DNA of 64,000 nucleotides from Hemileia vastatrix. Taxonomy: Eukaryota > Basidiomycota > Pucciniomycetes > Pucciniales > Zaghouaniaceae. A model generated the notes under the pieces. That model was not told the origin of the DNA and did not search any database. It saw nothing but the letters and a program-made list of their open reading frames with translations. Where the stretch lies: the NCBI GenBank assembly GCA_030280995.1, contig JASXTE010000012.1, forward strand, positions 12,684,001-12,748,000. Reading direction: 5' to 3'. The translations under genes were made by a program, and so were the position numbers. Shown here one piece after another: positions 751 through 60,539 of the stretch. The first letter of the stretch is position 1, and each line of letters opens with the position of its first letter.

Positions 751-1055
751 AATAGGGGGTATCAATGTTGACCAATAAACAATTAAATTAATTTCAGATA
801 AAAATAATTATACCCCAGTTATCTTCTGCAATTATTTTTGCTAATAATTGGGTTATTAGACCTTTTACCCGTCTATTTTCACCACTATCCAACATTTTTA
901 TCCTCAAATTTTCATAGCCACATCTTGGACAACTTTCTGTGTGTGACAGCCTCCCTACCTTGCGCGCACTCCCATCCTTTCTATTCATTTCCATTCAAAA
1001 CCCCTCCCCATCTCATCCGTTTTTTCTTCTCCTTTTCATCTTCAAATATTTCAAC

Positions 1056-2816
1056 ATGCCTTGTCATCATAGATCTTCTCAAAGACAGCCTTCCCCCAGT
1101 TATCCTTCAAATCCCATTACTCCCTCTTTCCCCCACTCAGCTGAGAAATCAATGACTTTTCAACTAAGAAAATATGATCATCTCATACTTATTAGGGGGT
1201 ATCAACGTTCAGGGATCTGCAATTAGGGATCAGGAATTTTTATTCCCCGGATCAGAAATTGTTAATTGTGGAAGATTTTTATCCACTGGCCCCGCGGCTA
1301 GTGGATAAGGAATCCATGATAATGCATTATCCCGCCTCTTATACCCCAATTTCCATTCCTAATTCCTGATCCCAAACTCATCACATCCATGATTGATTTG
1401 TATGCAAGTGACATGACATATAATTGCAGATGTTATGAATGAAAGTAGGCCAAGATGTGGTTATGAAAAATTTAGTATAAAAATGTTGGACAAGAGGTGA
1501 ACATTGACATGTAAAGTGTCTAATAACCCAATTATTAGCAAAAATAATTGTGGAAGATAATTGGGGTATAAGGATTTTTATCCGCAATTAATTTAATTGT
1601 GGATTGCTGAACATTGATACCCCCTATTAACTGGCTGAAAATAAAAACTAATTATGATTCTTGTTTTGGTAGCGAGAATGCAATTTAAGTAGGGCAGCCA
1701 CCTGCATCAAAAATCAATGGCTATCTTCAAATGGCCAATGAATTACAAAATAAGACAAAGGGAAGGATTGATCTTTTGACTAAAAAGATGCCTGAACAAT
1801 TCAAGCATTACTGAGCCAAATACAAGAAGGTAAAGACTCTTTCATCTTCTACTGGTTTTGGTATTGCCAACATTGATATCAGTAAGGGAATAAAATCCAT
1901 AGATGATAAAATTGAATATCTATGTCCATAATTTAAAGAGATGGATGCTATTTTTGGGGAGAAAGCTGATGTTAATCCTGCCAACATGTTGGATGGTGAA
2001 GACTCTATCTCCAAACATGATGTCAAAACAAATCTTTTCCTATCCTCTTCCTACACTCAAGCCTCCCCTGTTCAAAATTCAACAAATCTAGATAGCTTTT
2101 CGATAGATCCTTATGGTGATATAAACCAATGTGATCCCACTACAGTAAGCTTTTATTTCTTGTCTAGTTGTTTTATTTTTTTATTTCTAGAAAGGCTAAT
2201 GAACAAACCCAGGATCCTTAAGCAAGTTAGTCTGAAGCTAGCATCAATTATGAAGATGAAAAATTTACCTCCAAAAAAAATCAAAGACCATCAACTAATT
2301 TGAATTTCAACAGTCATAGAATGGAAAACAGGGATAGTTTTTCCCAAACCCCTTTTTCTTCTATTGATGATTTTCTGGAGAAACGTGATTCTGGTAAGTG
2401 AAAGCATACCTCTTAATAATTAAGTGAGATTTTCTTTTCTTTTGTCAATATTCCTTTTCACTCTAGGTAAAGTTGAAGTTGCAAGAGATACTCTCAGCTT
2501 TCAAAATAAAAAATACAAGCTCTCTTTAAAAAGGTATGATAGGGTACAAGACTTAAAGGGGAAGAAATTCAAGATTTCTTTACAGAGGGATGGGAGGGTA
2601 CAAGACTTAGAGGAGAAGAAATTTGAGCTTTCTTTAAAGAGGGATGAGAGGGCACATGACTTGGAGGTGAATAAATTCAAGATAAAGAAAGAGGAGAAGG
2701 ATCTTGAGTACAATTTCCTATTGGATCAAATGAAACTCAAGTATCAACTTGAAGATGGTTCAAAAAAGAAAGATTTCTTGAAAGAATGTGTTAAAGCTAA
2801 TAAGTCTATTGAGTAA
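1056..2816 (+). pseudogene. SANT/Myb-like coiled-coil protein of transposon H1, broken
   Basis: The frame starts with MPCHHRSSQRQPSPS at 1056, has a Ser/Pro-rich leader, and then a helical DNA-binding-like domain (DHLILI, NWLKIKTN, NGYLQMANELQNKT, FKHY, KYKK), which is best preserved in the H3 copy. An intron (about 2144-2190) separates it from an acidic exon, and the last exon (2470-2816) is a coiled coil with repeated blocks of the LKRDERAHDLE type. Harbinger elements usually encode a second, Myb/SANT-like protein that helps the transposase bind DNA; that role is inferred. The reading frame is broken by the nested element at 1194-1625 and by stops such as FKHY followed by TGA and LCP followed by TAA. 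The family name is a moderate-confidence call from the pattern, not from a search. Confidence 0.6.
1194..1625 (-). mobile_element. Nested 432-bp internally deleted derivative of H
   Basis: Starts AGGGGGTATCAACGTTCAGG and ends with GATACCCCCT, flanked by ATT at 1191-1193 and 1626-1628. About 240 bp at its left match the transposase end of H2 (17998-18240) and about 190 bp at its right match the SANT end of H (reverse complement of 754-950). It is therefore both ends of H joined by internal deletion, a MITE-like passenger. It interrupts the H1 SANT gene between codons that are contiguous in H2 and H3 (LILI and NWLK). Confidence 0.8.
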
Positions 2817-3171
2817 ATTGAATGCTTAATTAAAATGTTTGATAACTATTTTTTTATTTTTTTACAAATTTTTCTTGATAGAATGCATTAAAATTAATAA
2901 TAAATCCTCAGCACACACTCCTCACAGAGATTTGAAAAATTTTATTGCAATATTTTAGATTATTTGTTTGTTTGGTTAAATTAAATTAATTTTATTTCTT
3001 TTTGGTGATAATTTCATATGTGCTGACCTTTTAAAGGTCTTGATTCTAGATGATTTTTTTTTGCAAAAATTTGAAAAATTCATACATTTTTTCTTCTTTA
3101 CATTCAAATCATTAAATTTACTTTTCTAAATACAGCTAAGTCAACAAAACTCTACATCTTTTTTAAAAAAT

Positions 3172-3310
3172 TGGCAGTACCCTCCCCTGCATATTATTGA
3201 AGCAAGGGGTGTTTATCACAAAATTTTTTCTAAGTCATCAATTTCACATGTCAGATTTGAAAATTCAGCAATACCCTTCCCTAAATTTTATTGAAGTAAG
3301 GGGTGAAAAT
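3172..3310 (+). repeat. Two direct copies of a C-rich/G-rich motif between the convergent genes of H1
   Basis: Blocks of the form ACCCTCCCCTGCAT...ATTGAAGCAAGGGGTG occur at about 3178 and again at about 3270, roughly 91 bp apart. The C-rich and G-rich halves of each block can pair. Equivalent pairs lie at 37995-38110 in H3 and a single copy at about 26625-26650 in H2, always between the 3' ends of the SANT-like and Tet-like genes. A shared terminator or polyadenylation region is possible but unproven. Confidence 0.45.
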
Positions 3311-3535
3311 CACCAAAATTTAATAAAATTACATAAATTAATATATAAACAACTAATATATATCAATTTCCCTGGTTTTAAAGTAATGAAAATTCCTCTA
3401 GTCATAATGTGGATACATCTAGAAACAAATTTTTGGGACTTTCCACTAGTGTATGCTAAGGAACCTCATGAAACAAATTAATGTTGTCATGATTCCCATT
3501 TATACAACTCAAGGTCATTGGGCCATTACTTTACT

Positions 3536-4794
3536 TTAAGAATTTGAAATATAAAATTTATTTATAAAAAATTTATGAAAAAATAAAAAATATTTGATGA
3601 CTCTACTCATCCCCATACTTTTTTGATCTACATAAAGTTTTATTAAATTTATAACTTTTACCTTATTGATCTGTTGGATTAGTTTTTCACTAATTTGGAA
3701 GGAGCAGCCAAAATGAGTAAAGTCCTGAAAAGATTCCAAACCAGGGGGAACTTTTGTTGTTTGGTGATTATCCTTAGAAGAGTTCCAACTAGTTTTGATG
3801 ATTCCAGTTCCCAATCCAAAATTGATTATACAGTTGTGATCCAGTAAGTATAACCCATGATCTTTTGTTTTAGCTGGGGAAGGAATAGGTTGTCCAGTTA
3901 CTGGACTGATATATGAGAAAATTCCAAAAGTAAGATAATTGGCATCATTCATATTGATATGAATCTTATTTGGAATCCTGAATGAGTTATAATAACATTC
4001 GAAAATTCAAGATATTGGTTGCTGATTTCTACCCATTTGGAGTCACACCAGTTTGGTATTCCAACTTTGGTGGCAAGTTGATGATTCTTTTCAAAAGCTT
4101 TATTACAGAGTTTTTTGAGGCAAAGAGCAATAAAAGTATTGAAAGAAGGTAAGGTGTCCCATAAGCAAAAATCATCATCTTTTTCAGCTTTAGATAAATT
4201 TTTAAGTAAAGACTAAATGCCTATCGAAATAAAATTAGTGACATGATTTTAAGAAAGAAACATATATTATCAGACATACCAAGAGAATAGCTTTTAACAA
4301 ATCCTGGTCTCCAATCAAATCCAATCATAATACCACCCAACAAATTTGTATTCCTTAATGGTAAACAAACCAAAGCTATTTGACATAGTGTTATTATGAG
4401 ATCAGATAGTTGATTAAAGGTTTCATCTTTTGAACCATTAAAAGAATGATTTTCATAAATAAATTGAGGTTTAAAAGAATTACTGATAACTTCTTTAATT
4501 TCATCATCTCCTGATACGTTTAAATATTTTAAATCTTCTGGTAACTTTTTTGGATAAGAATTTTTTTGATCCACTCTAGTTTTATAGTATTGGATACTTC
4601 ATATATGGCCAAACAAGCAATCCAAATGAATTTTCTTTTTTAAATTTCTTTTATTCTGCTGACTTTGAACATCATTATTTTTTTTTTGATATTTTGGATG
4701 ATGATTGAAATGAAGTTAAATTTAAAAAAGATGATAAAGAGGATAAAGAGGATGATGATAGAGAAGTAAGAGGTGATTCTGACAAAATAGACAT
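3536..4794 (-). pseudogene. Tet-like 2OG-Fe(II) oxygenase of transposon H1, broken
   Basis: Read on the minus strand, the frame begins with a Ser-rich segment (MSILSESPLTSLSSSS at 4794). It then shows LGGIMIGFDWRPGF, which corresponds to the GGAMYACGWR block of rust Tet-like oxygenases. After an intron (about 4210-4280) comes a helical exon (PNWCDSKWVEIS). The catalytic barrel follows: GFQ/NKIHIN...YLTFGIFSYISPVTGQP, INFGLGTGIIKTSWNSSKDNHQTT and FTHFGCSFQISEKL. The family oxidises a substrate, in TET/JBP relatives a modified base, using Fe(II) and 2-oxoglutarate. Here the HxD iron motif reads HIN, and a one-base shift lies next to it (about 3958), so this copy cannot be a working enzyme. It is convergent with the SANT-like gene, as in H2 and H3. 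Confidence 0.7.
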
Positions 4795-4866
4795 TTTTTT
4801 CTCTGAACAAAAACAAATTTGTGTCAAAAACCTAAAAAATAAAAATGGCAAAAAAATAAAACTCAC

Positions 4867-5330
4867 AAAATTTACTTTGTTTATTCAACCTTAAGAATTT
4901 AATTGATAAAAATCAATCTAAATAATTGTTTTTTGAAAAGAAATCAGTCACTAAAACTGTCCTTGAAAAAAAATTGAAACAAAAATAAAATAAAATAAAA
5001 TAAAAACAAACATAAGTAAAATTATTTCCCAAAAAAAATGAATTTTAAAGTTATTTGGTGTTAGATATTCCAACTTAAGTCCTTGAAAAAAAATGATAAG
5101 AATGAATTATAATAAAAATCTAAACCAAAAAAAAATTTTGTATCCAAAAAATTATTCCCAAAAATAAAAATAAAAATTTTAAACACACCAAATTTATTTT
5201 TGATTCAGCTTGAACTGTAAAAAAATTTTTTTTTATAATATTCTTTAAAAAAAAAAAAAATACAAAATAATGTTAATAAAAATAATAAAAATTTTCTTTT
5301 ACATACTCACATATTACCCCTCCTTGTCTT
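4867..5330. other. Upstream region of the Tet-like gene in H1
   Basis: A- and T-run-rich DNA with no gene. The segment 5210-5340 reappears in reverse complement in H4 at about 60380-60490, so it is an integral part of the H transposon, presumably the promoter side of the Tet-like gene. Confidence 0.5.
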
Positions 5331-5925
5331 CCTCTTTTACCTCTTTTTGGTGTCCTCAACTCCCCCCCTTTACCCCCTTTTACCCCCTTTAGGCTGCCTC
5401 ACAATACTCCCCCCCCCTCTCCCCTCCCCCTCTCCCCTCCACTGCTTCCCCCCCTCTCCCCCTCTCCCCTCCACTGCTTCCCCCTCTCCCCCTCTCCCCT
5501 CCACTGCTTCCCCTGCTCCCCCCCTCCCCTCTTTTCTTGCCTCCTCCCCCCTCCCCTCTTTCCTTGCCTCCTCCCCCTTTTTATACCTAAATAAATTGCT
5601 AAGAAATTTGTTTAGCTAATAGGTAGCAGGTGGAAGTGACGTGAGAGGGGAGGGGGGAGGGGGGGAAAGGAAGAAGGGAGTAGGGGGTAGGGGGGAAGTA
5701 TGGGAGGGGAGAGGGGGGGAGTTGAGAGGTGGCTTAATAGGGGAAAAAGGGAGTAAAGGGGAGGGAAAAAAGGGCCTAAAGAGGGAAAAGGTGGTGCTAG
5801 AGAGAGGGAAAAGAGCACCTAAAGGGGGGGAAAGGGGAGTTTGCGGCAGTCAAGAAGGGGGGAAAGGAGGAAAAAAGAGCAGGACAAGAGAGAAAAGAGG
5901 GAGAGAAAAAAAAAAAATTAGTTTA
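5330..5925. repeat. Pyrimidine tract followed by purine tract inside H1
   Basis: From 5330 to 5580 the + strand is almost all C and T, with repeated units around CCCCTCTCCCCTCCACTGCTTC. From 5640 to 5920 it is almost all G and A. The two arms are roughly complementary and could fold back, or form purine/pyrimidine triplex DNA. Open frames here (Pro/Leu- or Gly/Glu-rich) are composition artefacts. Matching tracts are at 22780-23190 (H2) and 60196-60400 (H4), always between the transposase and the Tet-like gene. Confidence 0.8.
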
Positions 5926-6295
5926 ACCTTGAAAAAAAATAATTGAAGAACTTACAAAAAAACAAAAACAAAAACAAAAACACCATGATTAGCATATAAA
6001 AATTCAATAAAAATGAAAAAATGACTTACCTGGTGAGATGAGTTAAAAAAATGTAACCAAAAAATTTGAGGGATGTTTGAGGAGAGGAGGAAAAGGATAT
6101 GAGTGAAGAATGAAAAAAGAAGCACTAATGAAATATGCAATTTCATGTTGAGCTGGTGAAAGAAATCCAATGAGCCATCCAAAAAAGAGATATTCACCAT
6201 AAATTCAAAAAAAATGAATATGAAACAAACAAAAATACCAAGCCAAGTGAATAAAGTATACAAAGTGGACATTTGGAGAGTATGAAATCAAAAAA

Positions 6296-7552
6296 TTAAA
6301 AGGGTTTTGTGCCAATATGGTGAAGGGTGATTGGCATAATGACAGAGCATATTTCGGTTGAATGAATGTTTTGTGATTCAAGGGAGGGGAGAGCCGGCGC
6401 TGGTTCAGGATCCTCTTCTTCATAAATATCACTCCAATCATCCTTTAAGTCAGATAGGATATTGTGGAGTATAACGCAAGTCATTATCCAATGATTTGCA
6501 GTTTGGATTTCCATTTTTTTTGAAGTTGGATTCTGAGCTCACGGAGACTAGAAAATCTTCCTTTTAAAATCTCAATAGAATGTTCAATCCATACTCTTGA
6601 TTGGGCAAGGTGATAACTTAAGGTGGTTTTGGGGTCATTTTTTAAAAATTCACCACAGAAAAAAGGTATAATGTTCTTTACACTTGCATATGATGAGTCT
6701 GCAAGGAGGTACTGAGATTTGTAAAAGTATGAGCTAGGACTTTAAGAAATCCTCATTCTTTGGAAGACAGAAGAGTCAAGAAATGAGCCAGGCAGCCAAT
6801 ATGAAAAGCAATCAACTTTTTGTTGACATCAAAGACAAGTTGAATGGCAATAGAGTATCTACAAAGAAGATTAAAAGCTTGTTTATGAAAGATGTGAAAT
6901 TGGAGAACATTTTGAAGAAAACTTTTTTTGGGATCAAAATAATGGTTTCCATCATCAGCAGGCTTTTGAATCAAATGTATAGTTGTACCATCAACAGAAC
7001 CTACACATCCAGGGAAACCTTCATCTTGCATTATATGAGAGTATTCAAGTCGCTGTTGTGGAGTTGGCCAAGCAAGTGTTTGAGACTTGAGAAAAAGGAT
7101 AGCAATCATGCAGCACTTGGTGTATAGCATGATGGTACCATATCCTATGGTAAAGATATTATCTAAACATCTTACAGCAGCACCATTTCTATTTGAACCA
7201 AAGGGACATAGTGTGACAGCAAGTTGAAAGGCAGGATCATGCTGTTTATGGAAATTATTATGGAAGATAGGATGATTGGAGATGAGTTGAGAAATTTTGA
7301 GAAAAGAATCAGGAGAAGTTCCAAAAGTTGTGTGAACTTTAAATGAGGAATTTTGAGAATGGAGTGGAGATCATATCTGGGATCATGATAAATATTTGGC
7401 CCCCTTGGGATAACGCAACACTTTTTGGAAGGAAAAGACATATAAGCTAAAGTGTCTGCCAAACCAAAGTCAGAATCAGAGTCAGTGGCTAAAGCTAAAG
7501 TGATAGCATTCATAGCTGAGTGAAGTTGCTTCGTAGTAGAGAGGTGCTTCAT
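6296..7552 (-). pseudogene. PIF/Harbinger DDE transposase of H1, broken
   Basis: Starting at the ATG at 7550-7552 (MKHLSTTKQLHS, then an acidic DSDSDFGLADTLAY), the frame carries IPRGPNIYHDPRYDLHSIL, then LAWPTPQQRLE and the first catalytic block GCVGSVDGTTI. After an intron come YSIAIQLVFDVNKKLIAFHIG and a decayed middle. It ends with WIMTCVILHNIL, the C-terminal signature of DDE_Tnp_4 transposases, and an acidic tail. The enzyme would cut and rejoin the element ends. Frameshifts near 7290 and 6750 and stops between 6540 and 6750 break it. H2 keeps the middle better (LADSAY and EHAIGILKGRF), which allows the DDE triad to be recognised. Confidence 0.85.
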
Positions 7553-7825
7553 TATTGTTGGTAGAAGGTTTAGGTGATGAGTGGAAAGTGGGAATTCACC
7601 ACCAAATGAGCAGATGGGGTGTGTAGATAGAAAAAAAATGTTATGTTTTTTTCCACCATAATTAAGTATCATAGAGTGATGAGATACATAAGGATGGAAT
7701 CCACAATTATATGACATGTGACTTGCTTTAAAATCAATCATGGATGTGATGAGTTTGCGATCAGGAATTAAGAAGAGAAATTGGTGTATAAGAGGCAGGA
7801 TAATGCATTATCATGGATTCATTAT

Positions 7826-7862
7826 CCACTTGCCCTGGGGCTAGTGGATAAGAATCTTCTGC
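7826..7862. repeat. Subterminal hairpin at the transposase end of H1
   Basis: The sequence TTATCCACTTGCCC followed by GGGGCTAGTGGATAA can form a stem. The same palindrome occurs about 90-110 bp from the terminus in the nested derivative (1283-1313), H2 (18088-18118) and H4 (58808-58838). It may be a transposase recognition site; this role is inference. Confidence 0.6.
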
Positions 7863-7939
7863 AATAAATAATGTCTGATCCCAGGAAAAAAAATTCCTGA
7901 TCCCTAATTGAAGATCCCTGAACATTTATACCCCCTAAT

Positions 7940-17994: not shown

Positions 17995-18518
17995 ATTAGG
18001 GGGTATTGATGTTCAGGGATCAGCAATTAGGGATCAAGTTTTTTTTTTACCAGGATAAGACATTATTAATTGTGGAAGATTCTTATCCACTAGCCCCAGT
18101 GCTAGTGGATAAGGATTGCACAATAATGCATAATCCCACCTCTTATTCCCCTATTTCTGTTCCTAATTCCTGATCACAAACTCATCACTTCCATGATTGA
18201 TTTGCAAGCAATTCACATGACATATAATTGCAGATGCCATCCTTATGTGTCTCTTCACTCTATGCCACTTGATTTTGGTGGCAAAAACATAACATTTTTT
18301 TCTATCTACACACCCCACCTGCTTATTTGGTGGCAAATTCCCACTTCCCACTTCCCACTCATCACCTAAACCTTCTACCAACAATAATGAAGCACCTCTC
18401 TACTAGGAAGCAACTTCACTCAGCTATGACTTTTATCACTTTAGCTTTAGCCGCTGACTCTGATTCTGACTCTGGTTTGGAAGACACTTTAGCTTATATC
18501 ACAGTGGGAAAAAAGTGT

Positions 18519-18536
18519 GCACTAGACGTCTAGTGC
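18519..18536. repeat. Perfect 18-bp palindrome at the foldback left end
   Basis: GCACTAGACGTCTAGTGC lies 19 bp inside the terminus. It recurs at 21102-21119 near the right end and, with one change (GACATC), at 20703-20720 near the internal end. A symmetric protein-binding site is plausible. Confidence 0.75.
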
Positions 18537-20339
18537 TTTTTTCCATCCCTTGTTGTGATTTGGCTTGCGACTTCAGTCTATGTCACTGAATGACTGTGTT
18601 CTATCTCATTGCTCCCACCCCCCTACCTTACATCCCCTTCCTGAATTTCCACTCTATTCTTACAACTCTCCTCAATTACTACTAGAATAAGGAGGGACAA
18701 TGTGCATCATTTGAGTCACTTGCTGAATAGTCTAGAGGCACTGAAAAACAGGTTACTGAAGCAGTGAAGAGTTTCCATGTGCATACCAAAGAAAAGAAGC
18801 AGAAGTAGACAAAAAGGAAATGTAAGAGCTAAGTGGTGCAGTAATAAATGCAGTGACAGTCACTCACCATAATGGTGATTTGTACAACTGGAGTTGAAGC
18901 TGGTGTAAAGGAGAATAGGGCTCAAACAATATCAGCTTGACTTAAGACTCTACTGTGTTAGCTTAGTGGTGAAAGCTATACTCAGTATTTTTCTCACTGC
19001 TTTTCCAAATTTTTTTTCCCCAATTCTATACTCAAAAGTGAAAATTTGTGAAGGAGAATAAACGATTATGCTTGCCAGTCTTAATTATGCAATATGAATA
19101 TCAATATTGAATATCCTCTTTATTGATCCGGTTGATATAATATTTTCAACAACAAATTAAGAATTAAGTAAGCACAACTTTGTCATTGTAATAGATAGAT
19201 AAGTCAATATGGCTGTTGCAAATCAAATGAGCTATTCAGGTTTATAATCAAAGTGAAAATGGCCAAGTTGTAGCCATTTCAACCTAACATGTGATTCTCA
19301 CTAAGAAATTCCACATCTCACTCAAATTTTAAGTAACCATAATCATTTATAGATATATAAAGTTTAGTATAGTAATCGCAAGCCTAACATGTTAGGCTGA
19401 AATGGCTATAACATAGCCAATTTTACTTATATACTAAATCTGAATAGCTCATTGGATTCGGAATCACTATATTAACATTTCTATATCTTGAAACTATTAT
19501 TTTAGCTAAAAATTTGAGTGGCATATAGTACTTAGTGAAAATAACATGTTAAGTTGAAATGGGTATAACATTGCCAATTTTACTTACATTCCAAATCTGA
19601 ATAGCTCATTGGATTCGGAATCATCATATTAACCTTTCTATATCTTGAAATTATTATTGTTTTTAAAAATTTGAGTGAGATATAGCACTTCTTAGTGAAA
19701 ATCACATGTTAGGTTGAAATGGCTACAACTTGGCCATTTTCATTTCGATTGTAAACCTGAATAGCTCATTGGATTTGCAACAGCCATATTGACTTATCTA
19801 TCTATTGCAATGACAAAGTTGTGCTTACTTAATTCTTAATTTGTTGTTGAAAATATTATATCAACCGGATCAATAAAGAGGATATTCAATATTGATATTC
19901 ATATTGCATAATTAAGACTGGCAAGCATAATCGTTTATTCTCCTTCACAAATTTTCACTTTTGAGTATAGAATTGGGGAAAAAAAATTTGGAAAAGCAGT
20001 GAGAAAAATACTGAGTATAGCTTTCACCACTAAGCTAACACAGTAGAGTCTTAAGTCAAGCTGATATTGTTTGAGCCCTATTCTCCTTTACACCAGCTTC
20101 AACTCCAGTTGTACAAATCACCATTATGGTGAGTGACTGTCACTGCATTTATTACTGCACCACTTAGCTCTTACATTTCCTTTTTGTCTACTTCTGCTTC
20201 TTTTCTTTGGTATGCACATGGAAACTCTTCACTGCTTCAGTAACCTGTTTTTCAGTGCCTCTAGACTATTCAGCAAGCAACTAGGATGATGCGCATTGCC
20301 CCTCCTTAGTCTAGTAGTAATTGAGGAGAGTTGTAAGAA

Positions 20340-20895
20340 TAGAGTGGAAATACAGGAAGGGGACATATAACAATAGATAGTGGAAGAGAAATATAACAAT
20401 AGAAAGTGGAAGGGAAATATAACAATAGAAAGTGGAAGAGGAAGATAATAAGGGAAAGTGAAAGTTAAATATAAAGATAGAAAGTGGAAGGGGAGGATAA
20501 CAGCGGAAAGTGGAGATATAAAGAATGGAAAAGAGTGGAGAAATAAGGAATTATTAGATTGGGAAAAAGGAAATGTTGTCTCAGGAGAAGAGAGAGAGAA
20601 TAAAAAGGGGAGGTAGGAGATAAACAAATGTTAGGTGAGGGAGTACACAAATGGAATCACTACTGGAATCCTCATTAGAATCATTTTATGAAGCAAAAAA
20701 AAGCACTAGACATCTAGTGCACTCTTTTTTCCCACTGTGATAACAAGGTAAAGTGGAAGGGGAGGATAACGAGGTAAAGTGGAGGGGGAGGATAATGAGG
20801 TAAAGTGGAAGTGAAGGGTAATAAGGTAAAGTGGAAGTGGAGGGTAACAAGGTAAAATGGAGGGGGAGGATAATGAGGAAAGTGAGAAGGGGATA
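20340..20895. repeat. Purine-rich minisatellites in the foldback right arm
   Basis: Units of about 25 bp (ATATAACAATAGAAAGTGGA) repeat at 20355-20530, and units of 26 bp (GATAACGAGGTAAAGTGGAG) repeat five to six times at 20739-20895. The left arm lacks an equal tract, so these expanded after the arms formed. Confidence 0.7.
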
Positions 20896-22649
20896 TCAAC
20901 CAGGGAATGGGGAAATATCACAAATGGGGAGGAGAAGGGACATAAGGAGAGATTAGATTACAAGATGGGAGGAGATGCATGCAGAGGAGAAAGATATAAT
21001 AGTCAGGGGAGCTGAGAGATAAGAGAATTTCAGGGGAGGGAGTACAAAGATAGAATCACAAAAAGAATCCTTCATGGAATCATCTAAGGAAGCAAAAAAA
21101 AGCACTAGACGTCTAGTGCATACTTTTTTCCAGCTGTGTATGTCTTTTCTTTCCAAAAAGTGTTACATCATTCCAAGGGGGCCAAATCTTTATCATGATC
21201 CCAGATATGATCTTGCCTCAATTCTTGAAATTTCTCATTTAAACTTCACACAACTTTTTCAAACTTCTCCTGATTCTTATTTCAAACTTTCTCAACTCAT
21301 CTCTGATCATCCTATCTTCCATAATAATTCCCATAACAAACAGTGTAATCATGCCTTTAACTTGCTGTTGCACTATTTTGCTTTGGTTCAAATTAAAATG
21401 GTGTTGCTGTAAGATGTTTAGATAATCTCTTTAGCATAGGATATGGTAACGTCATATTATACAACAAGTGATGCATGATTACTATCCTTTCTCTCAAGTC
21501 TCAAAAACTTGCTTGGCCAACTCCACAACAGCGACTTGAATTCTCTCAAGTAATGCAAGCTGACTGTTTCCCTTGCTTTGTAGGTTTTGTTGATGGTACA
21601 ACTATACCATTGAGCTAAAAGCCTGCTTATGATGGAAACCATTATTTTGATTGCAAAAAAAGGTTTCTTCAAAATGTTCTCAAGTTTCTCTTCATGAAAT
21701 ACCTTTTTATCTTCTTTCAAGATACTCTATCACTGTTCAACTTGTTTGTGATATCAATAAAAATTTTATTGATTTTCATAGTGGCTGCCCTGGCTCATGT
21801 CATGACTCTTCTGTGCTCCAAAGAATGAAGATTTCTCAAAATCCTGACCAATACTTTGAAAAATCTCAGTACCTTCTTGCAGACTCAGCATATACAAGTG
21901 GAAAGTACATTATACCTGCTTTCCATGGTGCAACATTAAAAAATTACTCAAAAACCACCTTTAATTATCACCTTTCCCAATCAAGAGTACAGATTGAACA
22001 TGCTATTGGGATTTTAAAGGGAAGATTTTTTAGTCTCCAGGAACTCAGAATCCAATTTCAAAAAAAATGGAACTCTAAACTGCAAATCATTGGATAATGA
22101 TTTTTGTTATACTCCACAATATCCTAGCTAATTTAAAGGATGAGTGGAATGATATTTATGAAGACAAGGATTCTGAACCTGTGCTATCTCTCCCCTCCCT
22201 TGAATCACAAAATATTCTTTGCACTGGCATACACTCTGTCATTATGCCAATCACCCTCCGACATTTTTAAACACAACACTTTTAATTTTTTTTCATACTC
22301 TCCAAATGTTTAACTTGTATGCTTAATTCACTTGGGTCGGTGTTTTTTTTGCATATTCATTTTTTTTGAATTTATGGTGAAAATCTCTTTTTTGGATGTC
22401 TGATTTGTTTTCATTCTCCAGCTCAACATGAAAGCGCATTTTTTCAGCAATTGCATAATTTTTCACTGTTTCTTTTTTTCTTTCATCCCTCATATCCATT
22501 TCCTCCTCTTCTCAAACATCCCTCAAACAATTTGGTTTCACATATTCTATCATCTCATCTCTCCAGGTAAGTCATTTTATTCATATTTTTGATTTTTTGT
22601 TTGCTAATTATTTTTATTTTTGTTTATTTTTATTTTTATTTTTTTTTCT

Positions 22650-22650
<1 letters not shown>

Positions 22651-22687
<37 letters not shown>

Positions 22688-23190
22688 TAAGTGGTTCTTC
22701 TGTTGGTTTTCAAGGTTAAATTAACACTTTGTTTTTGTTCTATCTCTCCCTATTTTCTCTTTTTTTCTCCTTCATCCCCTCTTTATCCCTCCTAGGCCTA
22801 GGCTTTATCCCACCTTTTCTCCCTCCTTGGTATCCTCATTCTCCCCTTTTCCCCCTCCTTGGCCTCCTTAATCCCCCTTTTTCTCCCTTTGGTGTTCTCA
22901 AAACCCCCCTTTTTTCCCCTCTTAGGTGTCCTCAAGACCCCCCTCTTTCTTTTCCCCCCTTAGGCTCCCTCAGGCACTCCCTTTTCCTCCCTTTGGTCAC
23001 CTGAAAACCCCTCCTCCTCACCTATCACAGGCCCTAATGGGGTGTTGCAGACACCAAAGGGAGCAAAAGGGGGGATCTGGAGGACACCAAAGGGGGTAAA
23101 AGGGGGGATTTGAGGATACCAAAGGGGAAAAGAGATGGATTTTGAGGATGCCAATGGGGAAAAAAATGGGGATTGAGGAGACCAAAAAAA
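22651..23190. repeat. T-run, then pyrimidine and purine tracts inside H2
   Basis: A run of 36 T (22651-22686) precedes a C/T-rich minisatellite (22780-23030, units like CCCCCTTTTTCTCCCTTTGG) and a G/A-rich complement (23035-23190, GGACACCAAAGGGGGTAAAA). Position and symmetry match 5330-5925 in H1. Apparent Pro/Leu-rich frames here are artefacts. Confidence 0.8.
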
Positions 23191-23572
23191 GGATAATAGT
23201 GGGGAGGTATTGATGACATCAAAATAGGGAAATCAAGGGTTTAAGGTAGAATGAAATTGAAAATTAATTATTAATTTTTCTCTCTTATTTTTTTGTTATT
23301 TTTTATTTTTTTATATTTCAAAAAATATTGATTTGAAAATATCAACAAAATAAAATGTCAAAGTCCTCATCACTCTCATCACTCTCATCCTTTTTATCAC
23401 TTTCATCACTCTCATTATTATCATCATATTTGAAACCTTTTTCAGAAATGAAGCCTAAAATTTCTAATAAGAAGAGAAAATCTTATCAAAAACAAAGTTT
23501 AATTTGAAAGAAACAATTTTTTAAAGCCTTCATTGGTTCTTTGGAAAATCTGTCTCACTTCAAAACTACAAT

Positions 23573-25346
23573 AGGGGGTGTCAGTTCTAGCAAATCCGCA
23601 CTTAACTTAAGTGCAGATTTCAAACCAAATCAGCACTTAAATTTTTTAAAAAAGTCACTTATTTCAAAAATGGGTGTCAGTTATGACCTCAAATCAGCAC
23701 TTTTTTCCCGTTTTTTTTCACAAACACATGTTGGCCACAAAACATCCCTTCCTTTCTTACCCCATCCCTGTCACATGTGACACACTGTGCCCCCAGTGTC
23801 ATTGAATTACATGAGTACTTGTTTTGCATTAGCTTAGTAGAAATCAATGAATTCAACTACCAAAACTTATATTCAATCTTATATCTTAAAAAGGAAAAGA
23901 ATATATGACAGGATGTTGCAGCATACACATGATATCTTCAAATTAAGAAAAGCTTCTATAGAACCCCATTACATTCACCTTATAAATGCACAGTGACAGC
24001 TGATAATGGATAGATAATGTGTTGAGGTGTGGGCAATAAAGATTAAGAGGAATAGCAAGGGATTGAGAGTGCTATGAAAACATATCATTGTTATCATTTC
24101 CAGAAGCTCCAGAGCCAGGACCTCCACCTGGTTGCCCAGAGCTTTGAGGAGGGCGACCTGCTCCACCCATTAAACTAGCTGCCATTTATCTGGCTGCAGG
24201 ATTATTCATGAGCTACCACATTATGTGCAGATATAAGTTGCAAATCAGCAAAAAGTAATAATCAAAGAAGAGAATATAGTCAGAGAGGAAGTTAGAAACA
24301 TTTTTGGGAAGGAAATATAAAATAACACACCTGAGAAATATCTGGAAGGCCTCCTTGTCCAGATTGAAGGCTATTAATCATTTGCTGAACCATAGGATTT
24401 TGCATCATCCAGTCTAAACCACCGTTAGCCATCAATCCCTGCGCCCTAAACAGAGAAAGGAAGATAGAGAAACATAAGTTAAATATGCCATAGTAAGACA
24501 AAGTGAAATATCACATACATTTGAGCCATCATAGGATTATTCATGAGGCTGGCTAAGTTAGGACCACCAGGCCCACTGAAATTGGGCATCCCAGAAGCTG
24601 AGTCAGATGAATAATCAAGTTGATCCCCAGTGGAGAAGGAAGAATTGCCAGAAGTAGTCTTTGAGCGAGCGGTGGCTAAAGAAGACTTGATAGTGGAATT
24701 CTAGTAATAAAAAATAAAAAATAAAAAACAATTTTTTTATTGAAAAAAAGATAGTACTGATCAGTAAGGGTTGCAAAACTAAAAATAAAAAACGAAGAAA
24801 AAAGGAAAGAGTTGAAGATGGGATCAAAGGATAGATACATTTGGATCCAACTCTAAAGCTTTTTCGTAGGCTTCAACGCTTTGATCAAACTGGTCATTAC
24901 TAAAATAAGCGTGACCCAATCGAGAGTAAGCCTTAGCAAAAGTAGGGTCGATTTCACTTGCTTTGAGAGCATCGTCAATCACCAGCTGGTGTTGACTAGT
25001 TTGAGAATAAGCAGCAGCGCGATTAGAGTAGTAAACGGGATTTGAAGGATTGATATTTATAGCGAGGGAATATTTTTCAATGGCCTGAGTATAAGATTTA
25101 GCAGCCATGAGAGAGTTTCCCTCAGACTTAAGTGTTATGCTGTGGAGTTCTGTGTATGAATGGGATGATGCTGACAAATTAGTGAAATGGGACTTGATGG
25201 TGAAATCAGCACTTTTTGTTGAGAAAGTGCGGATTTGAGTGAAATAAGTGACTTTTTTCACTTTTGAAATCCACCAGTATTGGGGCTAGTGTGTTTTGGA
25301 AATCCGCACTTAGATAAGTGCGGATTTTCCAGAACTGACACCCCCT
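23573..25346. mobile_element. Pack-type element: family-2 termini enclosing a captured SGT2 fragment
   Basis: The left end AGGGGGTGTCAGTTCTAGCA and the right end (reverse complement AGGGGGTGTCAGTTCTGGAA) share their first 16 bases and are flanked by AAT (23570-23572 and 25347-25349). The right subterminal 220 bp match H6 at 15895-16130, and the left subterminal 210 bp match 29930-30141. The interior is not transposon sequence but a host gene fragment with introns. It sits inside the Tet-like gene of H2, where copies H1 and H3 are continuous. Gene capture at the DNA level by a Harbinger-like element best explains this. Confidence 0.85.
24072..25261 (-). pseudogene. SGT2: Captured SGT2 (small glutamine-rich TPR co-chaperone) fragment, chimeric 5' end
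   Basis: SGT2 binds Hsp70/Hsp90 and hands tail-anchored proteins to the GET pathway. Four exons can be read on the minus strand: 25261-24839, 24700-24519, 24445-24331 and 24212-24072. All have GT-AG introns and consistent phase. Exon 1 holds three TPR units (SEGNSLMAAKSYTQAIEKYS, NPSNPVYYSNRAAAYSQ, AYSRLGHAYFSNDQFDQSVE). Later exons carry the NNPMMAQM, LMANGGLDWMMQNPMVQQMI and LMNNPAAR segments and a Gly-rich tail. The N-terminal dimerisation domain is absent: homology starts at KSEGN, and the preceding 43 codons come from the transposon end. One stop (TAA at 24186-24188, where glutamine is expected) would remove the last 37 residues. Confidence 0.85.
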
Positions 25347-26339
25347 AATATGTAAAAAAAAAGAAGGTCCCAATTCATTACCAGAAAATATCAAGTACTT
25401 AACTGCTAGTGGAAAGGACATTGTGGTTGCAATTATTAGTAATTGATATAAACCTCAATTTATTATACAGTTTCATTCATTTGATGGTACTCAAGATGAG
25501 GTGTTTAATAAATTATCAGATGTCATTACTACTTTATATCAGATGGCATTAGTTTTACAACCTTTACAAAATCAAAAGAAGTGTGGAGGAATTATTATAG
25601 GACTTGGTTGGAGACCTGGCTATGAAAAGGGTGCCTTACTTTGTAAGTCTTTTTTTTCATAAATTCTTAAGAAACCCTATTTTCTTACTTTTCTCTCCAG
25701 GTATTTATTCTTTACTCCAGAATCTCAGTGAAAAAGAAATGAAGGAAGATTTAGAAAGATGGAAAAGCTTAAGATTATTCAATTCTTTCTTGGCCAATCA
25801 ATTAAAAAAATTATGTATTAAGGCATTTAAATCTAATCATAAACTGGCTAAGAAATCTGGAGTTCCCAATTGGATGGACGTGGAATGGGTTCAACTCAGT
25901 AACAATTATATACTTTCTTCTAATTTTATCATCACCTATGGAGTATTTCACAATCATATTCACATAGACAAAACCAATTCTAATATGCTTACTTATGACC
26001 TTTTCTGTTATATTGATCCTATTACTAGTTACCAATCCCTTCACCTGCTAAAATCAAAGGCCATGGACTATTCTTTTGGGATTATAAATGTATCATGGAC
26101 TTTAGTTTTGGAAATGAGATTATGGAATAAATTTGGAATTCTTCACAAGATAATCATCAAACTACTTAGGCACCTCCTGGATTGGAATCTTCCAAAAAGT
26201 TTACTCATTTTGGATGTTTTTTTTCAGATTAATCAAATTTTGATAAATTGGGTAAGTAAGGTAATGGGTGAAGGGTCAATATCTACTAACACATTAGGGA
26301 GGGGTTCTAAATACAGTAAGTAAAGGATTTCCAAATTTT

Positions 26340-26730
26340 TATTTTTTTTCTTAAATTTTTAATTTTATCAGTTATTAATGATAATCAATCAAATTAAGTA
26401 TTCTACCATTGAGCCCTTGTGCTGTATAAAGGTGTTCATGACAAGAATTATATTCTATGAATGAGTTCATAATACCATTCTTGTCATATGTTTTCAATGA
26501 ATTTGCTCATGAAATCATTGACAGATAGTATTTGGGATTCCTTTACTTGGTTTATTATCTTTTTTAATTAATTTACTTGATTATTTATGAAATAAAATGA
26601 AAACTTGGTAATTCTTACCCCCTTCTAGAGTAAATTTCAAGGGGGGTATTGACAAATTTTCAAATAATATGAGTAAATTTTTTGACTTGAAATAAATTTG
26701 GAATGAAATATGAACAAAAAAATAAAAAGA
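26340..26730. other. Spacer between convergent Tet-like and SANT-like genes of H2
   Basis: No gene. It holds the shared intergenic block (CTAGAGTAAATTTCAAGGGG near 26630). Tandem copies of the SANT-gene end begin immediately to the right. Confidence 0.5.
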
Positions 26731-26734
26731 ACTA

Positions 26735-27030
26735 GTCATCAAACATTTTGATTAAGCAGTCAATTTCCTCAACAGAGTTATTAGCCTTTATGCAATTTAT
26801 CAAGAAAACTTTCAAATAAAATTGGGATGAAATATGAACGCAAAAAATAAAAAAACTAGACATCAAATATATTAAGCAGTCAATTTCTCTAACAGATTTA
26901 TTAGCTTTAATGCATTCTATCAAGAAAACTTTCTAAACAAAATAAAAAAAACTAGTTATCAAACATTCTCATTAAGCGTTCAATTTCATCAATAGATTTA
27001 TTAGCTTTAACACATTCTTTCAAGAAATCT
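26735..27030 (-). repeat. Three tandem copies of the SANT-like gene's last segment
   Basis: The coding end ECVKANKSIDEIERLMRMFDN at about 26952-27015 is followed downstream by two diverged copies (CIKANNSVEEIDCLI at about 26865-26910 and ECIKANKSVREIDCLI at about 26745-26800). The spacing is roughly 120 bp. H1 shows one partial extra copy after 2816. Confidence 0.65.
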
Positions 27031-28564
27031 TTCTTTTTTGAACCATCTTCAAGTTGATACTTGAGTTTCATTTGATCCAATAGGAAATTGTACTCAAGAG
27101 TCTTCTCCTCTTTCTTTATCTTGAATTTCTTCACCTCCAAGTCATGTGCCCTCTCATCCCTCTTTAAAGAAAGATTAAATTTCTTCTCCTCCAAGTCTTG
27201 TACCCTCCCATCCTTCTGTGAAGAAAGCTCAAATTTCTTCTCCTCCAAGTCTTTTTCCCTATCATCCCTTTGTAAAGAGAGCTTGTATTGTTTCTTTTGA
27301 AAGTCGAGAGTATCTCTTGCAACTTCAACTTTACCTAGAGTGAAAAGGAATATTAACAAAAGAAAATACAAGCTCACTTAATTATTAAGAGGTATGCTAT
27401 CACTTACCAGATTCACATTTCTCCAGAAAATCATCCACCACACAATATGGGGGGCAGACTTGCTAGCAAGTCCGCAACCTTGGATCCAAACTCACCACAG
27501 ATTGAATACACCTTAAGCTATTGACAAAGGAAACATACAATCAGGGATGAACACCACTCAGCAGAACAGTTTTAGGTGGTTTTTCAAGTAGAGTTCAGTA
27601 TGAGTTCAGTCTGATTTCTATCTAAGTTTGATCTGAGTTCATGTTGGGAACTTTCTATCAAGTCCATCCCCTATGTTGTGTAGTGACCAATGGAATAAAA
27701 AGGGGTTTGGGAAAAACTATCTCTTTTTTGCTTTCTTTGACTGTTTAAATTCAAAGTAGTTGATGGTCTTTGCTTTTTTTGGAGGTAATGTTTTCCTCTT
27801 CATCATTTATGATAGCTTCAGACTAACTTTCTTGAGGATCCTGGGTTTGTTCATTAGCCTTTTTAGAAATAAAAAAAATAAAACAACTAGGAAAGAAATA
27901 AAATCTTACTGGAGTGGGATAACGTTGGTTTATATCACCATAAGGATCTATTGGAAATCTATCTAGATTTATTGAATTTAGAGCAGGGGAGGCTTGAGTG
28001 CAGGAAGAGGATGGAAAAAGATTTCTTTTGACATCATGTTTGGAGATAGCATCTTCACCATCCAACATGTTGGCAGGATTAACCTCAGCTTGCTCTCCAA
28101 AACTAGCATCCATTTCTTTAAAGTATGGATATAGAGATTCAAGTTTATCATCTATGGATTTTATGCCCTTACTGATATCAATTTCAGAAATACCAAAACC
28201 AGTAGAAGATGAAAGAGTCTTTGTCTTCTTGTATTTGGCTCAGTAATGCTTGAATTGTTCAGACATCTGCCTAGGCAAAAGATCAATCCTTCTTCTTGTC
28301 TTATTTTGTAATTCATTTTTCATTAGAAGATAGCCATTGATGTTTGATGCAGGGGGCTGTCCTACTTAAATTGCATTCTCACTACCAAAACAAGAATCAT
28401 AATTAGTTTTTTATTTTCAGCCAGTTGATAAGTATGAGATGATCATCTTTTTTTAGTTGAAAAGTCATTGATTTCTCAGCCAAGCAGGGGAAAGAGGGAG
28501 TAATGGAATTTGAAGAACAACTGGGGGAAGGCTTACTTTGAGAAGATCTATGATGATGAGGCAT
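26952..28564 (-). pseudogene. SANT/Myb-like coiled-coil protein of H2
   Basis: Starts MPHHHRSSQSKPSPS at 28564, then AEKSMTFQLKKDDHLILINWLK, NGYLLMKNELQNKT, MSEQFKHY, SSSTGFGISEIDISKGIKSIDDKLESL and a long middle (NPANMLDGEDAISKHDVKRN). An intron separates EQTQDPQES. The final open exon (27343-26952) is an almost uninterrupted coiled coil (LQRDDREKDLEEKKFELSSQ and repeats) ending RLMRMFDN. It was presumably the DNA-binding partner of the H transposase. Stops around 28400 (after WLKIKN) and after FKHY, plus a frameshift, break the first exon. Confidence 0.6.
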
Positions 28565-28871
28565 GTTGAGATATTTGAAGATGAAAAGAAGAAGAAAAAA
28601 ACAGATGAGATGGGGAGGGGTTTTGAATGGAAATGAATGGACAGGATGGGAGTGCGGGGCAAGGTAAGGAGTCTGGCAAATCCAGAAAGTTTCCCAAGAT
28701 GTGGTTATAAAAAATTGAGGATAAAAATGTTGGATAGAGGTGAACATTGACACGTAAAAGGTCTAATAACCCAATTATTAGCAAAAATAATTGCGGAAGA
28801 TAATTAGGGTATAATGATTTCTATCTGCAATTAATTTAATTGGGGATTGGTCAACATTTATACCCCCTATT

Positions 28872-35640: not shown

Positions 35641-35972
35641 TAATAATAATAATAGGGAGTATCAACATTAAGGCATCTGCAATTAAATTAATTGCAGATA
35701 AAAATCCTTATACCTCAATTATCTTTGACAAATATTTTTGAAAATAATTGGGTAATTAGACATTTTACATGTCAAAGTTCACCTCTTATCTGACATTTTT
35801 CTCTTCAATTTTTCATAACCACATACATCTTGGACAACTTTCTGGATATGCTAGTCTCCCTACCTTACTGCCCCACCCTCATTACATTCTGCCTATTCCT
35901 TCTATCTGTTCAGATCTCTCCCCATCTGATCTGCTCCTTTCTGCTCCTTTTCATCAAAAAAAATATCTTAAC

Positions 35973-36080
35973 TTGCCTTGGTGTCACATATCTTCTCAAA
36001 GGCAGCTTTCTTCCACTTGTTCTTCAAATCCAACTACACCCTCTTCCCCCTGCTCAGCTAAGAAATCAAACACATGTCAA

Positions 36081-36145
<65 letters not shown>

Positions 36146-37455: not shown

Positions 37456-38429
37456 TATTTTTTTTTTGTGATTTCTTTCCCACTTCAATTGTTCATAATT
37501 TTTTGTTCATAAAAGTATTTCATCATTTCCCATATTTCATTACTCTATCCACCATTAGTTGAATATTACTATCAAGATTCTCATATATTTTTAATGTAAC
37601 AAGTTCATTTTTAAATTGTCCTAATGGCTAATTTGACACACTTTTTTTTTTATTTCTTTGTGTTTTAATATCAGATTTTTCAAAATTACAACTCAAATCC
37701 ATAAATTTGAATTTTCAAAATAGAGCTCACCACAAAAAAAAAAAAAAAAAAAAAAAAAAACCCCGGAATCTTCTAGCAGGTGCCAAACCCTAAACCCATT
37801 TGTGACTCAAGAATAACTCATATTTGATTCCAAGAGAGCTGGCATACTCAGTGTATTGGTGTGTAGTTTTCTCAAAAGAATTACAGCAGAGCTATAACTC
37901 AATCATATCAAAGATATAGATTAGCACCTGCTTTCAGGTCCCCTCATTTCTCTTCTGGTGGCTAAGTCGAAAAAAATATATATCTGTTTTAAACATTTTG
38001 GTAATACCCCCACCTCCCTGTATTTTATTGAAGTAAGGTGTGGATATCAACAATTTTGCATTTCTGATTTGAAAATTTTGCAATACCCTCCCCTGAATTT
38101 TTTTGAATAAAAGTGTGGGCATCTCCAAGATTTAATATACCTACATAAATTAATATATAAATAAACAAATAATATATGTCAAATTCCCTAGTTTAAAATT
38201 AATGTTACTTCCTCAAGCCAAAATGCAGATCAAGTCCAGAAACAGAAGTTTTGGACTTTCCACAGGTATAAGCTAGAGGAACCCCATTAAAAAAATTAAT
38301 GTTTATATGATTAGCTGTTATACAAAACAAGTTCATTAGCCCATCACTTTAGTTTATTGAATTGAAATATCAGAATTTATTAAAAATCTATAAAATAATA
38401 ATAAATATTTAGTGACTCTAATAATCCCC

Positions 38430-58719: not shown

Positions 58720-59100
58720 ATTAGGGGGTATCAAAGTTGAGGGATCCTCAACTAGGGATCAGGAATTTTTTTTCCAGGATCAGAAATTATTAATTGCAGA
58801 AGATTTTTATCCACGTTCCCCAAGGCTAGTGGATAAGAAATCCACAATAAGGCATTATCCCACCTCTTATACCCCAATTTCCATTCCTAATTCCTGATCC
58901 TAAACTCATCACATCCATGATGGATGTTTAAGAAATTAACATGACTTATAATTGCTGATGCCATCCTTGAGTCTTTCCTCACTCTATGCTACTTAATTTT
59001 GGTGGCAAACACTTAAATTTTTTGTCTATCTACACACCCCAACTGAACATTTGGCATGAATTCCCACTTCCCTCATCACCTAAGCCTTTGACCAACAACT

Positions 59101-60180: not shown

Positions 60181-60195
60181 TAACTGATTTGAAGT

Positions 60196-60400: not shown

Positions 60401-60539
60401 ATATAGGAGTCTGTAAAAGAAAATTTACATTATTTTATTTTTTTATTTTTCCATTTTTTACAGAATATTATAAGAAAAAAAAATTTATTATTATGTTTTT
60501 AATCTTTTGCAGGAGCTCATTTTCTGGATGATGAAGTTT

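What the first reader, a model, noticed from the sequence alone, without database searches (positions are those of the whole stretch)
754..7936. A Harbinger-class transposon that carries a Tet-like 2OG-Fe(II) oxygenase and a SANT-like protein
H1 is bounded by inverted AGGGGG termini and AAT duplications and encloses three unlike genes. In basidiomycetes TET/JBP-type oxygenases are known to ride on KDZ transposons; here the partner is a DDE_Tnp_4-type transposase. A transposon carrying its own putative base-modifying or chromatin-modifying enzyme could protect itself from host silencing, and would explain the expansion of Tet-like genes in rusts.
Basis: partly seen in the sequence, partly recalled or inferred. 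Interest (0 to 1): 0.88.

Follow-up and report, generated by a model that had tools for sequence, protein, structure and literature searches.

The report
Harbinger transposon carrying swappable Tet-like gene
In the coffee leaf rust fungus an abundant Harbinger-type jumping gene carries its own Tet-like DNA-oxidising enzyme gene next to its transposase; such elements were already known from other rusts, but here the enzyme gene appears to have been exchanged between otherwise similar elements, as if it were a replaceable part.

Summary
H1 (754-7936) has AGGGGGTAT...ATACCCCCT ends, AAT on both sides and three genes: DDE_Tnp_4 transposase, PF20515 Tet-like oxygenase, and a third gene with a weak Myb/SANT-like match in one relative. 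The genome is Hemileia vastatrix Race I (scaffold length matches). H1 is decayed, but the unit is real: a second full-length copy (H2) lies in the window, and 11 of 15 sampled loci with an open transposase frame have the oxygenase in place (3 misses uninformative, 1 secondary loss). Tet-carrying Harbingers ("PHISTA", TA duplications, Puccinia and Austropuccinia) were published in December 2025 (PMC12730594), so the headline is not new. What differs: six empty sites show a 3-bp duplication; the host genus is new; and the oxygenase has its own history. Three oxygenase types (61-68% DNA identity between types) occupy one place; the oxygenase data reject the H1+H2 clade that both other genes support (AU p 0.00025). 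H1 against six related copies gives oxygenase dN/dS 0.11-0.16, and CpG-specific decay suggests the elements were methylated. That the enzyme lifts silencing is inferred; no cytosine methyltransferase exon was found on chromosome-scale contigs.

The parts
754..7936 (+). H1, full-length but decayed copy of the Tet-carrying Harbinger (X end left, Y end right)
   Evidence: ends and AAT/AAT; second full copy H2
751..753 (.). left target-site duplication AAT
7937..7939 (.). right target-site duplication AAT
754..937 (+). X-type end (shared with the mini-element and H2)
7704..7936 (-). Y-type end (shared with the mini-element and H2)
1056..2816 (+). gene 1 (third protein): N-terminal exon, whose open relative in L064 has a weak Myb/SANT-like match, and C-terminal coiled-coil-like exon 2424-2816; interrupted at 1194. 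Start inferred from L064.
1194..1625 (-). nested mini-element (Y end + X end only, reversed), ATT at 1191-1193 and 1626-1628; six empty sites in other copies
3536..4800 (-). Tet-like 2OG-Fe(II) oxygenase (type A), pieces 4221-4598, 3952-4212, 3539-4006; 5' end beyond 4598 inferred from L026; HxD motif reads HIN in this copy
   Evidence: PF20515
5330..5900 (.). C/T- and G/A-rich spacer on the 5' side of the oxygenase gene; one border of the exchanged block is inferred to lie in this spacer
6296..7807 (-). DDE_Tnp_4 (PIF/Harbinger) transposase in broken frames
17998..28868 (-). H2, second full-length copy (ATT/ATT) with the same three genes, oxygenase type B (25433-26240), DDE piece 21651-22094
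35654..38985 (+). H3, truncated copy: gene 1 and 3' part of a type A oxygenase
58723..60490 (-). H4, truncated copy: Y end and transposase, no oxygenase match found

Best explanation
H1 is a dead member of an abundant PIF/Harbinger-type transposon lineage of Hemileia vastatrix whose usual layout is: Y end - transposase - Tet-like oxygenase - gene 1 (convergent) - X end. The DDE transposase (probably with gene 1 as its DNA-binding partner) cuts at AGGGGG ends and duplicates 3 bp (AWT). The Tet-like enzyme is a working part of the element, most likely oxidising 5-methylcytosine on element DNA and so keeping it expressed in a host that methylates CpG in transposons. The oxygenase gene is a module of its own: it has been replaced by recombination between related elements, with boundaries in the repetitive spacers on either side. 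Shown here: anatomy, 3-bp duplication, association in many copies, purifying selection over long time, separate history of the oxygenase, CpG-specific decay. Inferred: substrate, cis-acting anti-silencing, partner role of gene 1, and the recombination route.
For: PF20515 and DDE_Tnp_4 over cut-off in H1, in H2 and in genomic copies. Two full copies in one window. 11 of 15 sampled loci with an open transposase frame have the oxygenase in place; my estimate of chance is about 3% per 2-kb slice, from 10,849 loose candidates in 748 Mb. Gene 1 exon within 1.5 kb of the oxygenase in 15 of the 30 best oxygenase loci, in opposite orientation in all 15 (7 of the 15 matches are short or weak). Six empty sites fit a 3-bp duplication with no gap at the insertion point. 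H1 against six type A copies, oxygenase: dN 0.10-0.14, dS 0.86-1.01, w 0.11-0.16; H1 against genomic copies, transposase 0.48-0.64 and gene 1 0.35-0.40. Type A and C oxygenases are 61-67% identical while, leaving out H1 and H3, gene 1 C-exons are 81-90% and transposases (L065 against L061-L063) 91-92%; identity changes in the spacer repeats; H1+H2 clade: transposase 97/97, gene 1 100/99, oxygenase rejects it, AU p 0.00025. CG columns 62% transitions against 20% (GC) and 26% (CC) in the transposase alignment. Puccinia graminis prefers CG methylation, strongly associated with young transposons (PMC8444563, passages).
Against: No enzymatic or methylation data for this fungus. PF00145 methyltransferase exons were found only on four small scaffolds, none on chromosome-scale contigs; three of the four loci differ in GC from the genome and may not be rust. 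The elements lost CpG in spite of carrying the enzyme. The HxD position reads N in 6 of 42 loci, H1 among them, so an apparently damaged enzyme can spread. The closest type A pairs give w 0.32-1.30, H1-H3 0.24, and H1-H2 transposase 1.08. No sequence match to a solved structure. Type B rests on H2 alone. In one search two further clades that I tried are rejected by the oxygenase and also by other genes, so they add nothing; and the H1+H2 clade was named after I had seen the identities.
Confidence: 0.6

Rival explanations
1. Passenger: the oxygenase was captured once and hitchhikes without serving the element.
For: Function is untested; L064 has open gene 1 exons and a transposase frame open for 393 residues without it; HxN copies exist; close pairs show little constraint.
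Against: Lowest dN/dS of the three genes between H1 and genomic copies; present in 11 of 15 sampled loci; different types, yet at one place.
Confidence: 0.15
2. The oxygenase works on something other than 5mC (6mA, thymine or RNA) or helps transposition itself, not silencing.
For: Kojima 2025 states that another activity cannot be excluded for PU-type enzymes, and that CcTET, close to the AG type, also acts on 6mA. Methyltransferase exons were not found on chromosome-scale contigs. RNA is my own addition.
Against: CpG-specific decay of these elements points to 5mC in the host; very low 6mA is stated for Puccinia graminis (legend passage).
Confidence: 0.2
3. No replacement of the oxygenase: older lineages carried different oxygenases, and gene conversion later homogenised transposase and gene 1.
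For: The oxygenase dS (about 0.86-1.01 for H1 against six type A copies) is far above the transposase dS (0.24-0.31 for H1 against L061-L065), which either direction explains.
Against: Homogenisation would have to stop at the spacers flanking the oxygenase. It would still be a form of modular exchange.
Confidence: 0.25
4. Artefact: the oxygenase is a chance nested insertion or an assembly error in this window.
For: The region is full of nested insertions.
Against: Same layout in H2 and in loci on other contigs.
Confidence: 0.01

Closest known systems
PHISTA, Tet-carrying Harbinger families of Puccinia and Austropuccinia (Kojima 2025, PMC12730594; outline, parts 1-4 of 7, figure legends and found passages seen; parts 5-7 and supplements not)
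   Same: Harbinger transposase, Tet/JBP oxygenase and a third protein inside one element in rust fungi; proposed anti-silencing role; Tet genes reported to move between transposon superfamilies.
   Different: PHISTA is defined by TA duplications, with a third protein without Myb/SANT; here the duplication is 3 bp by empty sites and the third protein has a weak Myb/SANT-like match. Hemileia has no occurrence in that text. Exchange of the oxygenase between copies of one lineage in one genome is not described in what I saw.
Nuwa / canonical PIF-Harbinger
   Same: 3-bp duplication and, possibly, a Myb/SANT-like second protein (features as given in PMC12730594).
   Different: Nuwa families encode two proteins, transposase and Myb/SANT protein, and no oxygenase is named among them.
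KDZ (Kyakuja-Dileera-Zisupton) and hAT7, IS3EU, EnSpm, ESTA, Helitron carriers of Tet/JBP genes (PMC12730594)
   Same: Fungal DNA transposons that carry a Tet/JBP oxygenase.
   Different: Other transposases; TSD lengths given for them are 8, 7, 6, 3 and 2 bp (Dileera, hAT7, IS3EU, EnSpm, ESTA).
Puccinia striiformis DDE_Tnp4 proteins (PSTG_15328, PSHT_12080, PSHT_15882, Pst134EB_012415)
   Same: 48-60% identical over 62-87% of an H1 transposase piece.
   Different: Their genomic context was not available, so whether they lie in PHISTA elements was not tested.

Membership tests
PIF/Harbinger superfamily | DDE_Tnp_4-type transposase | tested here: met
   PF13359 over cut-off in pieces of H1, H2, H4 and in L062, L064, L065
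PIF/Harbinger superfamily | terminal inverted repeats and 3-bp target duplication | tested here: met
   AAT or ATT on both sides of H1, H2, the mini-element, L062, L064, L065; six empty sites of seven sequences tried, the seventh not aligning there; AAT or ATT outside 29 of 31 ends matching a set pattern in L031-L065, two ends being counted twice because loci overlap, so 27 of 29
PIF/Harbinger superfamily | second protein with Myb/SANT domain | tested here: inconclusive
   Myb_DNA-bind_4 E 0.0076 and 0.0016, under the cut-off, in L064 only; none in the pieces of H1, H2, H3 and L061 given; profile search of solved structures gave no Myb chain; H3 structure model pLDDT 54.5
PHISTA | TA target duplication | tested here: not met
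   Six empty sites align with no gap at the insertion point under a 3-bp duplication; a TA reading would leave three extra bases. Tested for the mini-element; for the full copies it rests on the repeats at their ends, from which alone TA could also be read.
PHISTA | carries a Tet/JBP gene and a third protein | tested here: met
PHISTA | third protein without Myb/SANT | tested here: inconclusive
PHISTA | transposase position in the PHISTA branch | not tested
Tet-like 2OG-Fe(II) oxygenases (PF20515; PU type) | match to the family profile | tested here: met
   H1 pieces 6.2e-8 and 1.9e-6, H2 9.1e-12, L062 7.4e-25, L026 9.1e-34; an H3 piece only 0.013, under the cut-off. Assignment to the published PU clusters was not tested.
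Tet-like 2OG-Fe(II) oxygenases (PF20515; PU type) | HxD..H iron-binding triad | tested here: met
   29 of 41 fully readable loci (44 examined: 2 lack the region, L073 lacks the last part); H1 itself reads HxN. 30 of the 44 were picked by similarity to the Pfam model. Which H is the distal one is recalled, and in H2 it is read across a frame change.
Tet-like 2OG-Fe(II) oxygenases (PF20515; PU type) | oxidation of 5mC | not testable with these tools
   needs an enzyme assay
KDZ transposons | KDZ-type transposase | tested here: not met
   the element's transposase matches DDE_Tnp_4 instead

The most novel reading that the evidence does not exclude
The Tet-like gene is an exchangeable anti-silencing cassette: one Harbinger chassis in Hemileia holds at least three alternative oxygenases (types A, B, C) at the same site, swapped by recombination through the flanking repeat-rich spacers, perhaps because each lets the element escape a different host or sibling control. 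The lineage would be a natural arms-race series with many replicates in one genome.
Probability: 0.35. Interest if true: 0.85.

Novelty: new variant of a known kind. Interest (0 to 1): 0.6.

Why it matters
If the reading holds, one 748-Mb genome offers many natural copies in which related transposons carry different Tet-like enzymes, apparently intact or damaged, or none, so the proposal that transposons use Tet enzymes against DNA methylation could be tested from methylation maps alone. It also suggests that the duplication size and third gene of Tet-carrying Harbingers are not uniform, and it gives a concrete reason for the abundance of Tet-like genes in this rust.

Tried and rejected
A TA (2-bp) duplication was considered because TA flanks the GGGGG core at nearly all ends; rejected by six empty sites. 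Faster evolution of the oxygenase as the cause of the discordance: rejected, since L061, L062 and L063, with 94-96% identical transposases, have 93% identical oxygenases, while L065 with a 91-92% transposase has a 62% oxygenase.

A link between a damaged triad and CpG loss: within type A, 11 copies with D (one of them, L069, reads CxD) have CpG o/e 0.24-0.69 and 5 HIN copies 0.07-0.20 (p 0.00046 if copies were independent). I do not claim it: four of the five HIN copies look related by descent (my reading), 8 of the 11 D copies were picked by similarity to the Pfam model, the copies chosen by transposase alone (3 against 4) give p 0.057, and outside these copies it fails (L009, HLN, 0.41, against 0.00-0.44 in L002, L012, L023, L024; ten further HxD loci 0.07-0.37).

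Protein searches with the H2 oxygenase region and with the H3 gene 1 exon found no relative at E 0.001. Structure prediction of the gene 1 domain was too poor for a fold search, so none was run. Oxygenase against solved structures gave nothing. Of the four sampled loci without oxygenase, the L068 and L075 slices match L063 DNA that holds an integrase-like retrotransposon frame (my reading), and L072 matched none of the four copies tried, so these three say nothing either way.
Full report
What the window is. The window lies in a 747.6-Mb assembly of 791 contigs. Contig C26 is 71,415,227 bases long, exactly the largest scaffold of the published Hemileia vastatrix Race I assembly (PMC10652848, part 1 of 2 of its text read); GC is 33.6% in the window against 33.78% published. 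I take the organism to be the coffee leaf rust.

Anatomy. H1 runs from 754 to 7936 between AAT repeats. Its ends share only about 16 bp; inside, the X end (left) and Y end (right) differ. Transposase and oxygenase lie on the minus strand, gene 1 on the plus strand, so gene 1 and the oxygenase converge. Pfam finds PF13359 and PF20515 over their cut-offs. A mini-element, 1194-1625, made of a Y and an X end in reverse, interrupts gene 1. H2 (17998-28868) is a second complete copy with ATT repeats; H3 and H4 are truncated. H1 is damaged in several places: interrupted gene 1, HIN in place of HxD, changed frames.

Is the oxygenase a regular part? A search for the H2 transposase scored 150 hits of 9,147 first-look candidates; one for PF20515 scored 150 of 10,849, all over cut-off. 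The first-look numbers are loose and count exons. Of the 150 transposase hits, 28 have an open frame of 377 residues or more and no stop (my count); I fetched surroundings of 15 of these (5 of 10 kb, 10 of 2 kb). Eleven of 15 have the oxygenase in place (L061, L062, L063, L065; L066, L067, L069, L070, L071, L073, L074; in some only part of it). Of the four others, the L068 and L075 slices match retrotransposon-like DNA of L063 and L072 matched none of four copies tried. L064 (ends at 2430 and 9051, AAT on both sides) has open gene 1 exons and a transposase frame open for 393 residues (455 in L061, L062, L063), but another insert of about 2 kb where the oxygenase stands in others; its close relative L063 (95.6% and 92.8% in the adjoining stretches) keeps the oxygenase, so I read the loss as secondary. 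Starting from the oxygenase instead, 15 of the 30 best PF20515 loci have the gene 1 C-terminal exon within the 1.5-kb flank, in opposite orientation in all 15; I count eight of these matches as strong and seven as short or weak.

Target duplication. The full copies H1, H2, L062, L064 and L065 and the mini-element show AAT or ATT on both sides. Because TA also flanks the GGGGG core, a TA duplication could be read from the ends. The mini-element in gene 1 settles it: H2, H3, L061, L062, L064 and L065 hold the unoccupied site, and all six align with no gap at the insertion point to the H1 flanks with one ATT removed; a seventh sequence, a further partial copy in L062, did not align there. Of 31 ends matching a set pattern in L031-L065, 29 are preceded by AAT or ATT; two ends are counted twice (L042 lies in L061, L049 in L064), so 27 of 29.

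The oxygenase has its own history. DNA identities: L061, L062, L063, L066, L070 and L074 have oxygenases 92-96% identical (type A, with L019 and L020; H1 is 78-83% and H3 73-75% identical to these). L065, L001, L004, L008, L011, L014, L016 and L029 form type C (90-95%). H2 is type B (64-68% to all others in these matrices), and no genome search for relatives of it was answered. A and C are 61-67% identical. Yet gene 1 C-exon identity between A and C carriers is 81-90% if H1 and H3 are left out (73-79% with these two), and the transposase of L065 is 91-92% identical to those of L061-L063. H1 and H2 have gene 1 at 91-93%, transposase at 86%, oxygenase at 65%. Trees (7-8 copies): transposase (97/97) and gene 1 (100/99) join H1 and H2; the oxygenase data reject that clade (AU p 0.00025). 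I named the clade after seeing the identities. Two other clades, L065 with L061 and L062, and L065 with L061-L063, are rejected by the oxygenase (p 2.5e-5 and 0.0037) but also by the transposase (0.0018 and 1e-199), and the first by gene 1 too (0.0002), so they are no evidence of conflict. Alignment of A and C loci shows identity near 55-71% through the oxygenase, rising to 82-92% at and in gene 1, with the change inside the short repeats between the two genes; in the pair L020-L008 part of gene 1 stays at 57-76%. The other border lies in the spacer towards the transposase and is less clear.

Selection. H1 against six type A copies: dN 0.10-0.14, dS 0.86-1.01, ratio 0.11-0.16 for the oxygenase over 190-196 codons (H1-H3: 0.24). 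H1 against L061-L065: transposase 0.48-0.64 (H1-H2: 1.08); H1 against L061, L062, L064, L065: gene 1 0.35-0.40 (H1-H2: 0.78). The closest pairs among type A give 0.32-1.30, as expected if inserted copies decay freely, so constraint is seen only over longer time. Stop and frame-broken codons were left out, which favours constraint somewhat.

Host methylation. CpG observed/expected is 0.15 in the window, 0.13 in H1, 0.15 in H2, 0.22 in L062 and 0.39 in L064. In transposase alignments, columns with a CG in any copy read TG, CA or TA in 62% of cells, against 20% single transitions at GC and 26% at CC columns; gene 1 56% against 26% and 16%; oxygenase 45% against 18% and 28% (23, 11 and 12 CG columns). 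This is what methyl-cytosine decay would leave. Against it: PF00145 was found only on scaffolds C74, C228, C350 and C561 (43-159 kb); three of the four loci have GC 0.45-0.49 and all four CpG o/e 0.74-0.93, unlike this window, so they may be contaminants; none of the 8 matches lies on a chromosome-scale contig. The search works exon by exon and may miss genes with many introns. DNMT5 and, but for one species, DNMT1 are reported from 12 Pucciniomycotina genomes; Hemileia does not occur in that text (PMC12210899, passages).

Third protein. Kojima reports no Myb/SANT domain in the third protein of PHISTA. Here one open copy, L064, matches Myb_DNA-bind_4 at 0.0016-0.0076, the only family listed for it, but below the cut-off. 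Pieces of H1, H2, H3 and L061 gave no such match. I leave the SANT label as likely but unproven.

Novelty. Among the listed hits of my paper searches (capped lists) I saw one paper on Tet-carrying transposons of rusts, PMC12730594 (outline, parts 1-4 of 7, figure legends and found passages seen). It describes Tet-carrying Harbingers, movement of Tet genes between superfamilies, and the anti-silencing idea. The older report it builds on (Iyer et al., recalled) is not held. In these searches I saw no description of such elements in Hemileia, of 3-bp duplications in Tet-carrying Harbingers, or of oxygenase exchange within one Harbinger lineage; supplements could not be read.

Noticed in passing
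window 23573-25346 (minus), nested in H2: 1.8-kb element with AGGGGGTGTCAG ends and ATT on both sides that carries a TPR gene, seemingly with introns, resembling the Sgt2/SGTA co-chaperone (Pfam TPR_1 4.4e-23; 3sz7 Hsc70 cochaperone SGT 1.4e-25 among many TPR chains): perhaps a host gene captured by a sister Harbinger family.
   Followed up: partly
window 15890-17400: Stretch resembling the end of that AGGGGGTGTCAG family (by eye) beside remains of a DDE transposase, next to a 200-bp mini-element 15645-15845 (AAT/AAT).
   Followed up: partly
L064:4579-6567 and window about 27437-27690: Another insert family with GGACTTGCTAGCAAGTCC-like ends, found where L064 lacks its oxygenase and in gene 1 of H2 (by eye).
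   Followed up: no
type A oxygenases H1, L061, L062, L066, L070; also L009: HxN instead of HxD in the iron-binding motif; four of these lie beside open transposase frames.
   Followed up: partly
G000 scaffolds C74, C350, C561, C228 (L076, L078, L077, L079): The only cytosine methyltransferase matches lie on small scaffolds, three of the loci with GC 0.45-0.49: possible contamination of the assembly.
   Followed up: partly
whole window: Strong CpG depletion, observed/expected 0.15.
   Followed up: partly
window 38985-40500: H3 is cut off by retrotransposon-like sequence with gag-like frames (my reading).
   Followed up: no
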